DNA of 64,000 nt, taken from positions 62,001 through 126,000 of the forward strand of contig JAAFJX010000004.1 of the NCBI GenBank assembly GCA_013299045.1, given 5' to 3'. Below the pieces are notes generated by a model that saw nothing but the letters and a program-made list of their open reading frames with translations, was not told the origin of the DNA and searched no databases. This document shows positions 20,322-51,867 of the stretch, one piece after another. Within the stretch, counting starts at the first letter, position 1, and the number at the start of each line of letters is the position of its first letter. Source of the DNA: Cytophagales bacterium. GTDB taxonomy: Bacteria > Bacteroidota > Bacteroidia > Cytophagales > Bernardetiaceae. Made by a program: the position numbers and the translations under genes.

Positions 20322-21015
20322 ATGAAAAACTCCGTTCGTTCTTCGTTCTTCGTTCTTCGTTGTAGTTTGTAGTCTTTTTGTCTTGCTGCTTGGTAGTTGT
20401 AGTAAGTCCGTTGAAGATTTAATTGCTGATGCTAATTTACCTCTTGTTATAGCCGGTGGTGAATTCGATACCTGTGAAGAATGCTGTTCTGCTTATGCTG
20501 ATACGTGGAAAAAGTTTTGTCCTGGTTGTGGCTGTACTAGAAAAATCATGGATGACATAGATAATGGTGGAGTTTGTTTTGTAATTACTGTTGCTCGTGC
20601 TAAGGCTTCAAATCCAACAGGTTTTGTCAATCCTTTTGAACTGACCAGACGCAAGTTGATAGCCGATGACTCGCCTGTTAGTCTTGATATTCTTAACTTT
20701 TATGATATTCATAGTGCAAGAGTTCAATATTTGGTACTTCATGATGCCTCTTTAATGCAGTCTTCTTATAATTTAATGATAAGTCTTACACCTTATTTCC
20801 TTGATTTTGCAAATAATGCCAACAACAGCGGAAATATTATTACTGCAAGCCTTGTTTTGGAAATTAATAATTTTATTTCCAGTATTATCGCAGCAAATGG
20901 CTCACAAGGCTCTTTAGCTACTGATTTGAATTTTATGCTCAATAAACTGAACTTGAATAGTTTAGTAGGCCTTACTGCTACGCAAGCCTGGGCTGCCATA
21001 AAGACCAGTTACTAA
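20322..21015 (+). CDS. Cysteine-rich lipoprotein, currently out of frame by one 7-bp repeat unit (phase-variable candidate)
   Basis: The body of the gene is open from 20326 to 21015, but the only ATG (20322) is in the wrong frame and runs into TAG. Between them lies the heptamer array at 20337-20357. Losing one 7-bp unit would fuse the ATG to the body and give a classic lipoprotein signal, MKNSVRSSFFVVV followed by a hydrophobic run ending in the lipobox LLGSC. Without that change only a TTG at 20383 is available, which gives no signal peptide. The mature part begins with six clustered cysteines (CEECC, then CPGCGC), possibly metal-binding, followed by a helical region. I do not recognise the family. 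An HELGH metalloprotease gene starts 20 bases downstream. Confidence 0.7.
20337..20357 (+). repeat. Heptanucleotide tandem repeat (CGTTCTT)3 in the signal-peptide codons
   Basis: Three perfect CGTTCTT units (20337-20343, 20344-20350, 20351-20357), flanked on each side by a partial CGTT. Because 7 is not a multiple of 3, gain or loss of a unit changes the frame of the lipoprotein. Going from three to two units puts the ATG at 20322 in frame. Confidence 0.85.
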
Positions 21016-49079: not shown

Positions 49080-49126
49080 AACTATTTAAAAAAAAATTTA
49101 CTTTTTCTATTTCTTTTACCATACTT

Positions 49127-49161
49127 TTTGGGTCTATGTATTAGGCAAGGTTTTGTCTTTG
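49127..49161 (+). promoter_or_regulatory. Probable promoter of the 49226 lipoprotein
   Basis: TTTG at 49127-49130 and TGTCTTTG at 49154-49161 (one mismatch to TAnnTTTG) with a 23-base spacer; GCGG follows as at rpoB. Confidence 0.4.
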
Positions 49162-49225
49162 CGGACTGAAACGCTCTTGTTTCGGCTTTTTCTTTTAAAT
49201 TTTAACCCAAAAACAAACAAAACTC

Positions 49226-49828
49226 ATGTTAAAAACCATGAAACTCTACTGGCTGCTGCCTTTTGTGCTAGTGGCTGTGTTGGCTGCTAGTGGATGTAAA
49301 AAAGAGGAAGTGGCTAAGCCCAAAGAAGACCCGAAGGAAGACCCCAAAGAAGACCCCGTAAAGCCTATTACCTATGATACCAACTTCTGCCGAGAGGCTG
49401 AGGCCGCCGACTTCAAAACCTTTGAAGAGTTCAAGGCTGCACTTGTGGGCAAGTGGGTACAGGTAGGAGAGTACACCCTGAGTTACCGCTTTGAAACTCG
49501 CCCATCTTTTAAGGAAGTTGTTACGAAAAACTACACTCTGTACAAAGCGAATGACTCGTCTTATTATCACAAGCACTCTAGGGAAGGCGAAGTTATCTCA
49601 ATATCAACAAGGAAATACAATATTGGCCTGACTCCTAAGGGTAAAATTGGTATGTATAGGGATTTGGACTATAAAAACCCCGATGGGACTATGGGCAAGG
49701 AGCGTGTTTATCTTTATCTCTGCAATGGGGATTCTACCTTGGTGGTTGATTACAACTATCTAAGAAATAAAAATTTATGGTCTGCTGACATTGAGGTCTA
49801 TCATCTTATCTATAAACGCAGACCATAA
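49226..49828 (+). CDS. Lipoprotein with KEDP repeats, unknown function
   Basis: A 200-residue lipoprotein: hydrophobic signal (about 5-21) with lipobox AASGC, then a charged spacer of three KEDP repeats encoded by 12-bp units (in frame, so copy changes would keep the frame), and a beta-rich domain (about 65-200) containing VGKWVQVGEYTL and ending YHLIYKRRP, reminiscent of lipocalin-like lipoproteins of Bacteroidota. A second ATG at 49238 is an equally good start. The disrupted M43 protease gene begins 20 bases downstream, so they may share a transcript. Confidence 0.75.
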   Translation: MLKTMKLYWLLPFVLVAVLAASGCKKEEVAKPKEDPKEDPKEDPVKPITYDTNFCREAEAADFKTFEEFKAALVGKWVQVGEYTLSYRFETRPSFKEVVTKNYTLYKANDSSYYHKHSREGEVISISTRKYNIGLTPKGKIGMYRDLDYKNPDGTMGKERVYLYLCNGDSTLVVDYNYLRNKNLWSADIEVYHLIYKRRP

Positions 49829-49847: not shown

Positions 49848-51037
49848 ATGAAAACAAATAAAATAATATTCAGCCTTATCGTGTTTTTTGGCACGATTTT
49901 TAATGGGGGGGGGGGATTCTCGCCCAAGATTTTTGTGGCACTAAGCTAGACGCTTACACCCATGCCCAAGAGCGCGCCGAAATGAAGCAAAAAATGCGTG
50001 CCGGCAAAAATGGGCGCATCGGTAGCGACTGCTACAACATCTATCAAGACTGCCCAACAGCTACTTACACCATTCCGGTTGTAGTACACATTGTCCGAAA
50101 CACAAAAGCAGGCGGAGACCCTTTTATTGCTGACTCTGCCGTACACAAAACCCTCAAGGAACTCAATCAGTACTTTGCGGGCACCCACCCAGACCAACTG
50201 ATTGCCGACCCAGCCTTCTCTTCTGTTTATGCCGGCGACACCAAAATCAAGTTTGTATTGGCTGCCGTAGATACCGCAGGTCTTCCCCATTCAGGCATCA
50301 TTAGGATAGATACTCAAATAGACTCTTTTATGATGTTAGACCCTATCGACCCGTATGATGCCACGAAATATAACGGAGATGATTATGAAATAACCACAAA
50401 CCCTATTCCCAGCGTCAAGCGCATCTTAGATGGTGGGAGCAAGGCATGGCCTCACAACAAATACCTGAATATCTGGGTCTGCGATATAGCCGACCATGTG
50501 GGTGATGTTGCCTCTGGCTTTGCCACCTTGCCCAAATGGGATACCTACTTTCCTCAGTTTTCGGGTGTGGTAGTAGAGCCAAGTTGCTTTCTGCAAACGC
50601 CGGTGATGCTTGACATACACCTGATAAGTAAACCAAGGTCAACACTGGCGCATGAAATAGGGCATTGGCTAAATTTATACCATACCTTTACTGATGGCTG
50701 TTCTGGCGATTGTGATTATACTGCTGGCGATTTCTGCGAAGATACGCCAAGAGAAAATGTTATGGGTTGGGTGGGTGTTTGCACAGGGGCAGCCAATACC
50801 TGTCCTGAGCCGGGTAAGGATATGGATGAAAATATCATGAACTATACGAGCTGTAGAATGATGTTTACCAAAGAGCAGGCTGCCCGTATGCAATGCGCCT
50901 TAGCCGACCGTAACGGTGCTTTTATGGACGGCAATAACTGCATAGCCCAGCTATCAAGCCCCAAAACCAATATTCCGACTGGTGCTATTGCTTTGGCTCG
51001 GTTAGGCTCGTTTCAGCAGCGCTCTACGCTAGTGTGA
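49848..51037 (+). CDS. M43-type (pappalysin/cytophagalysin-like) metalloprotease, out of frame at an 11-G tract
   Basis: The ATG at 49848 starts a good signal peptide (MKTNKIIFSLIVFFGTIFNG) but with 11 Gs at 49905-49915 the frame ends at TAG 49947. With 12 Gs it would continue ILAQDFCGTK into the protease. The protease frame carries the zinc motif HEIGHWLNLYH (HExxHxxxxxH), cysteine-rich CSGDCDYTAGDFCEDT and the Met-turn NIMNYTSCRMMFT, typical of secreted M43 peptidases. It then stops at 51037; the C-terminal part lies in another frame (next entry), so there is a second lesion. It is a likely T9SS cargo. Phase variation, pseudogenisation and sequencing error all remain possible. Confidence 0.75.
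49905..49915 (+). repeat. Poly-G tract (G11) inside the signal-peptide codons
   Basis: An uninterrupted run of 11 Gs, the longest homopolymer of G or C noticed in the window. One extra G restores the frame between the ATG at 49848 and the M43 peptidase. Confidence 0.9.
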
Positions 51038-51780
51038 ACTATGTGTGGAGCTTTGCGAGCAGTCCATCTCCTTTGATTACGCTCAGTACGCTACCGGGTA
51101 ATCCACACGTAGCAGTTATCATAAATTCCGACCCCACGTACAGCGGGCCTATAGTCTTGCAACTTCAGTTGGCTTCCACACTCCCCCCCGGTGCAAACTG
51201 CGGTACTAGTCCCGTTTACACCTATACACTCTGGGCGGGAAGACCTAAAAACCCTACTATCAGTTTTACTAGTGGATTTGGACGACAATGTAAATATCTA
51301 GACAGAATGATTGTAAATTCACCAGGGGCTGATAGCGTAGAATGGACTGTTTATAGACCTCTAACTGGTGAAAATTGGCTTATTCTATCAAGTGTCAATT
51401 ATCAGATTTTTGCAGGATTTGAGTACGGTTGGTATCATGTCAAAGCAAGAACCTACAACAGCTGTGGTTGGTCGCCTTTTTCAGCGACTTATCAATATCA
51501 AATTATAGACTGCGATACGGGCGACCCTGGTGGCCGCATGGCTTCCCTTGCGCCCAACCCTGCCCAAAACCAAGTAACAGTAACGGTCAGGAGTGAAATA
51601 CCAATAGCGCAAGGTGGCCTGGATATTCGCATCAAGGATATGTATGGCCTAGAAAAAATAGCCGTGCAGAGCCAAACCCGCGAAACGAGCTTGGATATCA
51701 GCACTTTGTCCGTCGGTATTTACATCGTTTATGTGCAGAACGGCTCAAAAATAGAGTATTTGCGCTTGAACGTGGAATAA
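51034..51780 (+). pseudogene. C-terminal part of the M43 protease gene with T9SS type A sorting domain, separated by a frameshift
   Basis: The frame is open from 50938 to 51780 and overlaps the end of the protease frame. No good independent start or ribosome site exists (the GTG at 51034 is internal-looking), and there is no signal peptide. It encodes fibronectin- or Ig-like beta segments (for example SVEWTVYRPLTGENW and YGWYHVKARTYNSCGWS) and, from about residue 170, a T9SS sorting domain: SLAPNPAQNQVTVTV to LSVGIYIVYVQNG. The architecture is what would follow an M43 domain, so this is the detached C-terminus of the upstream gene. The shift lies between 50938 and 51034. Confidence 0.75.
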
Positions 51781-51800
51781 TCTGTATTAATTTCATTATT

Positions 51801-51841
51801 AAACCTTTACAAAGTTATCCGTGCTCTGTAAAGGTTTTTTT
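51801..51841 (+). terminator. Intrinsic terminator after the M43 gene
   Basis: Stem AAACCTTTACA / TGTAAAGGTTT with a 15-base loop and a T-run. Confidence 0.85.
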
Positions 51842-51867
51842 GATGCGGAAACACTAAATTCTTCCCT

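What the first reader, a model, noticed from the sequence alone, without database searches (positions are those of the whole stretch)
49848..49990. Eleven-G tract that disconnects the signal peptide of a secreted M43 metalloprotease
The signal-peptide frame from ATG 49848 and the protease frame are both intact but offset at a run of 11 Gs; 12 Gs would join them. Long poly-G tracts in signal-peptide codons are typical of phase-variable surface genes. Together with the 7-bp repeat at 20337 this suggests that the organism uses more than one type of unstable repeat to vary its exported proteins.
Basis: partly seen in the sequence, partly recalled or inferred. Interest (0 to 1): 0.8.

Follow-up and report, generated by a model that had tools for sequence, protein, structure and literature searches.

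The report
Poly-G switches on secreted protease genes
A run of 11 Gs puts a secreted protease gene out of frame, and the same kind of run sits in the same place in at least a dozen sister genes of two related Cytophagales species, so it most likely works as a random on/off switch for a whole set of exported proteases; this particular copy also carries a second break and may be dying.

Summary
G11 lies at 49905-49915, with a signal-peptide frame from ATG 49848 before it and an M43 metalloprotease frame after it, offset by one base; 9 or 12 Gs would join them. It is not a lone oddity. Seven exported-metalloprotease loci in this genome and seven in a congener (Cytophagales MAG PH2015_06S_41_96) carry G or C tracts of 8-15 at the signal peptide or propeptide. 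Twelve of the 14 are out of frame (5 by -1, 7 by +1) and two are in frame, one of them a complete gene. Complete tract-OFF genes keep open 600-codon frames under purifying selection. Ten of the 14 G/C tracts of 10 or more in both genomes lie in this family. M43 loci from other genera lack the tract. Slipped-strand phase variation of a family of T9SS-exported proteases, each with a partner lipoprotein gene, is the best reading. The layout resembles the Tannerella KLIKK/potempin array, with a phase switch added. Length variation within a population was not testable here.

The parts
49100..49263 (+). conserved 5' flank of the cassette, including the start of the lipoprotein gene
   Evidence: 92-98% identical over 163-179 bp to loci C16, C51 (two copies), C59 and C72 of the same genome
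49226..49828 (+). lipoprotein gene (200 aa, lipobox-like ...AASGC), placed 19 nt before the protease start; function unknown, candidate cognate partner or inhibitor
   Evidence: ORF; no Pfam or NCBIfam match; a related lipoprotein precedes the M43 paralogues
49848..49904 (+). signal-peptide coding segment MKTNKIIFSLIVFFGTIFN, upstream frame
   Evidence: paralogous segments align before all M43-type tracts
49905..49915 (+). G11 tract, the putative phase switch; OFF in this assembly
49916..51037 (+). protease frame: end of signal peptide (ILAQ/D), propeptide, M43 catalytic domain, premature stop
50441..50902 (+). Peptidase_M43 (pappalysin) domain with HEIGHWLNLYH at 50651-50683
   Evidence: PF05572 E=4.6e-21; motif conserved in alignment A1
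50985..51012 (+). second frameshift relative to paralogues C48a, C59 and C39 (one-base difference near 50988)
   Evidence: tblastn frame change; DNA comparison
51034..51780 (+). downstream ORF in another frame: Ig/PKD-like region and T9SS type A sorting domain (51553-51750)
   Evidence: PF18962 E=3.5e-9
51507..51861 (+). conserved 3' flank of the cassette (T9SS tail plus 3' sequence)
   Evidence: 92-99% DNA identity to C51, C59 and C72; tail 99-100% aa identical at three other loci

Best explanation
The G11 tract is the ON/OFF switch of one member of a multigene family of type IX-secreted metalloproteases. Gain or loss of single Gs by slipped-strand mispairing during replication moves the signal-peptide start codon in or out of frame with the protease, so each cell exports a random subset of the family. 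In this assembly the window copy is OFF, with 11 Gs where 9 or 12 are in frame. Shown here: the tract, the frames, the paralogues, the spread of lengths and phases in two species, selection on OFF genes, and the T9SS tails. Inferred: slippage rate, reversibility, and expression in ON cells. This copy carries a second frameshift before its T9SS sorting domain, so it is probably a decaying member and tract change alone would not restore an exported full-length protein. Each protease follows a lipoprotein gene, most likely a cognate partner and possibly a self-protecting inhibitor like the potempins (by analogy only).
For: (1) Tract-bearing protease loci. Own genome: window G11, C48a G10, C59 G11, C70 G10, C39 G8, C51 C11, C72 C15. 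Congener: C43 G10, C47 G11, C42 G9, C25 G15 and G8, C33 C10, C1 C8. (2) M43-type tracts sit at the same place in the signal peptide although flanks have diverged. (3) Phases are spread: 5 at -1, 7 at +1, 2 in frame (chi-square p=0.26 against equal), as free slippage predicts. (4) One congener gene (C47, G11) is in frame over its whole length: signal peptide, M43, PKD and T9SS tail in one open frame of 643 codons. (5) OFF genes C48a, C39, G1-C43 and G1-C42 keep 607-633-codon frames ending in a T9SS domain, with pS 0.68-0.84 against pN 0.25-0.46 in pairwise comparisons: these OFF states must be recent or reversible. (6) Ten of 14 G/C tracts of 10 or more in the two genomes fall in this family, which is about 0.65% of the DNA (binomial P about 1e-19, post hoc). 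(7) None of the 28 M43 loci taken from outside the genus has a G/C run of 8 or more within about 1.5 kb, so the tract is a lineage-specific acquisition. (8) A/T runs of 8 inside other window genes do not break them, so general homopolymer miscalling is unlikely; the congener was sequenced by Illumina HiSeq (PMC6776057).
Against: No reads or sister strains were available, so length variation within a population is unproven. All seven own-genome loci are OFF (chance 0.06 if each phase is equally likely). Several members are plainly decayed: the window copy (second frameshift), C59 (about 540-bp repeat inserted), C70, C16, G1-C28, G1-C25. The lipoprotein gene beside the single complete ON protease is itself frameshifted, which does not fit a simple inhibitor model.
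Confidence: 0.78

Rival explanations
1. Ordinary pseudogene decay: duplicated protease genes are dying and the G tract is just where frameshifts accumulate, without selection for switching.
For: The window copy has a second frameshift; C59, C70, C16, G1-C28 and G1-C25 are broken elsewhere. No complete gene is ON in the own genome.
Against: Four OFF genes have intact frames of 607-633 codons with pN far below pS, and the tracts are kept at one place in both species at lengths of 8-15. Decay predicts breaks at random places and no upkeep of the tract. For the window copy alone this rival is about even with the switch reading.
Confidence: 0.12
2. Transcriptional slippage or programmed ribosomal frameshifting at the G tract makes some in-frame product whatever the genomic length, so the tract is a leaky frameshift element, not a heritable switch.
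For: Long homopolymers can make RNA polymerase slip; PMC2831843 describes this for Buchnera poly(A) tracts. It would explain purifying selection on OFF genes without any genetic switching.
Against: A programmed site should fix one offset; here -1, +1 and 0 all occur, at lengths from 8 to 15. One complete gene is simply in frame.
Confidence: 0.07
3. Assembly or sequencing error: the true tract has an in-frame length and the gene is intact.
For: Long G runs are error-prone, and the second break near 50988 is also a one-base difference; no reads could be inspected.
Against: Twelve of 14 tracts in two independently assembled genomes would have to be wrong; A/T runs of 8 in other window genes read through intact; the family-wide tracts remain even if individual lengths are off.
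Confidence: 0.05

Closest known systems
NalP of Neisseria meningitidis, a phase-variable surface protease (PMC3723659)
   Same: An exported protease switched by a homopolymeric tract in its coding sequence; reported poly-C lengths of 6-15 overlap those seen here.
   Different: NalP is one autotransporter gene in a human pathogen, whereas here a whole gene family in aquatic Cytophagales carries the tracts and has T9SS tails; NalP phase status was measured across isolates, this was not.
KLIKK proteases and potempins of Tannerella forsythia, including mirolysin (PMC4404884, PMC7296668)
   Same: An array of T9SS proteases with virtually identical C-terminal domains, each preceded by a small lipoprotein gene; mirolysin is also a pappalysin and is among the nearest solved structures (6r7u, E=7e-18).
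   Different: No KLIKK terminus (these end LRL-VE); M43 and M12-like metalloproteases rather than six proteases of mixed class; G/C tracts in signal peptide or propeptide; loci dispersed rather than clustered; inhibitory activity of the lipoproteins untested, with no sequence or fold match to any solved structure.
Ulilysin and other M43B pappalysins
   Same: Catalytic-domain homology: PDB 3lum, E=3.8e-18 over 269 residues.
   Different: Ulilysin is archaeal and, from general knowledge, is not known to be phase variable.
Poly-G/C contingency loci of Campylobacter and Helicobacter (PMC8355987, PMC2823697)
   Same: Hypermutable G/C homopolymers within genes that change reading frame.
   Different: There the switched genes are mainly surface-modification genes in host-adapted species; here the tracts concentrate in one family of exported proteases in a Bacteroidota lineage.

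Membership tests
SSR phase-variable (contingency) locus | long homopolymer near the 5' end of the coding sequence, with open frames on both sides | tested here: met
   G11 at codon 20
SSR phase-variable (contingency) locus | tract length differs between homologous loci or strains, giving ON and OFF frames | tested here: met
   Lengths 8-15 in 14 loci of two species; 2 in frame, 12 out. These are paralogues and congeners, not strains of one species.
SSR phase-variable (contingency) locus | OFF genes are maintained by selection | tested here: met
   pN far below pS in complete OFF members; the window copy itself is degraded downstream
SSR phase-variable (contingency) locus | high-frequency reversible length change in a clonal population, with matching expression | not testable with these tools
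   no reads, no cultures
Peptidase family M43 (pappalysin) | match to PF05572 above its curated cut-off | tested here: met
   75.8 bits against a cut-off of 23
Peptidase family M43 (pappalysin) | zinc motif HExxHxxGxxH | tested here: inconclusive
   The window copy reads HEIGHWLNLYH (Asn for Gly, zinc ligands kept); congener ON gene C47 reads HETGHWLGLIH; paralogue C39 reads HQIGHWLGLYD and may be inactive
T9SS type A cargo | Sec signal peptide plus C-terminal PF18962/TIGR04183 domain in one reading frame | tested here: not met
   In the window copy all parts are present but in separate frames. Met in the congener gene C47.
KLIKK protease array of Tannerella | C-terminus ending in Lys-Leu-Ile-Lys-Lys | tested here: not met
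   tails end in LRLNVE, LRLAVE, LRLVVE or LRLIVE
KLIKK protease array of Tannerella | near-identical C-terminal domains across proteases of different classes, each preceded by a lipoprotein gene | tested here: met
   tail 99-100% aa identical in M43-type and C-tract-type genes; lipoprotein genes upstream
Potempin inhibitors | lipoprotein that inhibits the protease encoded downstream | not testable with these tools
   no structural or sequence match found; model of low confidence (pLDDT 60)

The most novel reading that the evidence does not exclude
A combined switch-and-shuffle system in free-living Cytophagales: dispersed lipoprotein/metalloprotease cassettes whose near-identical 5' and 3' flanks allow cores to be exchanged by recombination, while a G or C tract in each gene randomly sets which proteases the type IX system exports, so that a clone diversifies its secretome without a host immune system as the obvious driver.
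Probability: 0.35. Interest if true: 0.75.

Novelty: new variant of a known kind. Interest (0 to 1): 0.64.

Why it matters
Homopolymer phase variation is best known from host-adapted pathogens, and ten literature searches turned up no case in a Bacteroidota or of T9SS cargo (absence from this library is weak evidence). Here a family of exported proteases in two aquatic Cytophagales appears to be gated one by one by G/C tracts, with a layout close to the Tannerella KLIKK/potempin array. If confirmed, it would show randomised secretomes in environmental bacteria (bet-hedging against phage, grazers or competitors, or division of labour in secreting costly public goods), and would warn that automated annotation will call such genes pseudogenes or give them false starts. 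Deep reads over about 14 tracts would test it directly.

Tried and rejected
Viral contigs: only three distant M43 relatives, no use. Lipoprotein partner: no Pfam, NCBIfam or PDB match; AlphaFold model of low confidence (pLDDT 60) and Foldseek hits not significant; no fold is claimed. Loss of mismatch repair as the cause of long tracts: no support, MutL is present in both genomes, an 888-aa MutS-family protein in the own genome and a further MutS-domain protein in each. A tract shared by all M43 genes of the family or order: rejected. The lipoprotein family was not found in nine family-level genomes, with no positive control in that search. Programmed frameshift with a fixed offset: not supported. 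An internal start at ATG 49982 giving an unexported protease is not excluded but leaves the conserved signal-peptide segment unexplained. At locus C51 an alternative upstream ATG reads in frame through C11, so that locus could be ON with a different N-terminus.

Full report
Observation. The window is bases 62001-126000 of contig C48 of a 79-contig, 4.06-Mb genome. At 49905-49915 there is a run of 11 Gs. Before it, ATG 49848 opens the segment MKTNKIIFSLIVFFGTIFN; after it, in another frame, comes GGILAQDFCGTKLDAYTHAQ and a protease. Nine, 12 or 15 Gs would put the two in one frame. The downstream ORF matches Peptidase_M43, PF05572, with E=4.6e-21.

The ORF that holds the catalytic domain ends at 51037. 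The next ORF, in another frame, holds the T9SS sorting domain, PF18962. Comparison with paralogues places a one-base difference near 50988. So the window gene has two breaks: the G tract, and a second one that cuts off the outer-membrane export signal. The second break is not at a long homopolymer. The window copy is therefore most likely a decaying member of its family, unless the second break is an assembly error.

Paralogues in the same genome. A scan for G runs of 9 or more and inspection of each showed the same arrangement, signal-peptide segment, G tract, M43 protease, at C48:51694 (G10, called C48a here), C59:69036 (G11) and C70:131151 (G10, degenerate). C39:36674 has G8. A second protease type has a C tract in the propeptide: C51:56220 (C11) and C72 (C15). 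These are metzincin-like (Reprolysin_5 in Pfam, weak for C72), and C51 has a T9SS domain. One relative of that type, C53, has no tract and is in frame over 777 codons.

A second species. It carries M43 genes with G10 (C43), G11 (C47), G9 (C42), G15 and G8 (C25), and C-type genes with C10 (C33) and C8 (C1). C47 is in frame throughout: MKNFHNICLFLACLLM-GGG-ELLAQ, then M43, PKD and T9SS tail. The 28 M43 loci fetched from genomes outside the genus have no G/C run of 8 or more in the stretch held.

Phases. Over 14 loci the tract is in frame at 2, one base short of an in-frame length at 5 and one base long at 7 (C33 and C1 worked out from the frames). This does not differ from equal use of the three phases (p=0.26). 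A fixed programmed frameshift would give one offset. The in-frame G1-C25 gene is truncated, C33 seems to have lost its start codon, and C51 has an alternative ATG that would read in frame; these are caveats to the count.

Selection. Complete OFF genes C48a, C39, G1-C43 and G1-C42 keep frames of 607-633 codons. Pairwise comparisons over the family give pS 0.68-0.84 and pN 0.25-0.46. Synonymous sites are saturated, so ratios are rough, but purifying selection on the proteins is clear. Genes permanently OFF would not be kept this way.

Enrichment. Tracts of 10 or more G/C number 9 in the own genome and 5 in the congener. Ten of these 14 lie in the protease family, which is about 0.65% of the DNA (P about 1e-19, a post hoc estimate). 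Several other G/C runs of 8-9 belong to a dispersed repeat, one copy of which, about 540 bp, has landed in the C59 protease gene.

Cassette structure. A 165-bp 5' flank (window 49100-49263) is 92-98% identical at C16, C51 (twice), C59 and C72, and the T9SS tail with 3' flank (51507-51861) is 92-99% identical at C51, C59 and C72, while the protease cores are only about half identical in amino acids or of another type. Recombination or gene conversion between loci is the natural inference. A lipoprotein gene precedes the proteases, 19 nt upstream in the window. The lipoproteins beside M43 genes form one alignable family, and those beside C-tract proteases look different after the signal peptide, so lipoprotein and protease types seem to go together.

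Mechanism. Most likely slipped-strand mispairing changes the tract by single bases and so decides whether the signal peptide is joined to the protease. MutL is present in both genomes, an 888-aa MutS-family protein in the own genome and a further MutS-domain protein in each, so no repair loss need be invoked. Shown: anatomy, length spread, phases, selection. Inferred: rate, reversibility, expression.

Comparison with what is known. As a switch it works like NalP of Neisseria meningitidis, with poly-C lengths of 6-15 (PMC3723659). As an array it resembles the KLIKK proteases of Tannerella forsythia: virtually identical C-terminal domains (PMC4404884) and a preceding lipoprotein, reported as a specific inhibitor, or potempin (PMC7296668). 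It is not a member: the C-termini end in LRLNVE and the like. Whether the lipoproteins inhibit is untested, and the lipoprotein beside the one complete ON gene is broken. Nearest solved structures are ulilysin and mirolysin. Literature searches gave no case of SSR-switched T9SS cargo, but the library is incomplete.

The heptamer. (TTCGTTC)x3.9 occurs at window 20335 and at C20:54801, in two paralogous lipoprotein genes, both out of frame by the same offset; loss of one unit would join the frames. With two loci at one length this is weaker evidence than the G/C tracts.

Verdict. Observation confirmed; interpretation supported for the family and only partly for this copy. New variant of a known kind: SSR phase variation applied to a family of T9SS-exported, lipoprotein-paired metalloproteases in environmental Cytophagales.

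Noticed in passing
window 20335-20361 and G000:C20:54801 (L186, L187): Heptamer (TTCGTTC)x3.9 just after the start codon of two paralogous lipoprotein genes, both out of frame by the same offset; a second SSR type in the same genome.
   Followed up: partly
L043 (G000:C59), and L154, L158, L160, L170, L177, L185: A dispersed repeat with a C5-C9 run (CGACTCAAGAGAGGTTAATTTAAG...GCAACTCTGCGGAAAGGACGGTTTTAATAA); one copy of about 540 bp interrupts the C59 protease gene, so it looks mobile (MITE-like).
   Followed up: partly
L089 (G000:C51:54000-60000): Three tandem lipoprotein genes upstream of one C-tract protease, suggesting local amplification of the partner gene.
   Followed up: no
L076 (G001:C47), about 1300-1400: The lipoprotein gene beside the only complete in-frame (ON) protease is frameshifted near its start.
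   Followed up: yes
L231 (G004), L222 (G009), L218 (G006): Other genera of the family have G/C tracts of 10-12 inside or just after signal peptides of unrelated exported proteins, some in frame, some not; SSR switching of exported proteins may be wider in this family.
   Followed up: partly
L082 (G000:C39): The G8 M43 paralogue has HQxxHxxGxxD in place of HExxHxxGxxH, so it may be a catalytically dead homologue although its frame is conserved.
   Followed up: no
L155 (G001:C14:14593): G11 inside a 331-aa ORF (MSESNERIWQKRFERERLIRKEAEALMEQK...), some 280 bases before its stop; another possible tract-switched gene, not an exported protease.
   Followed up: no
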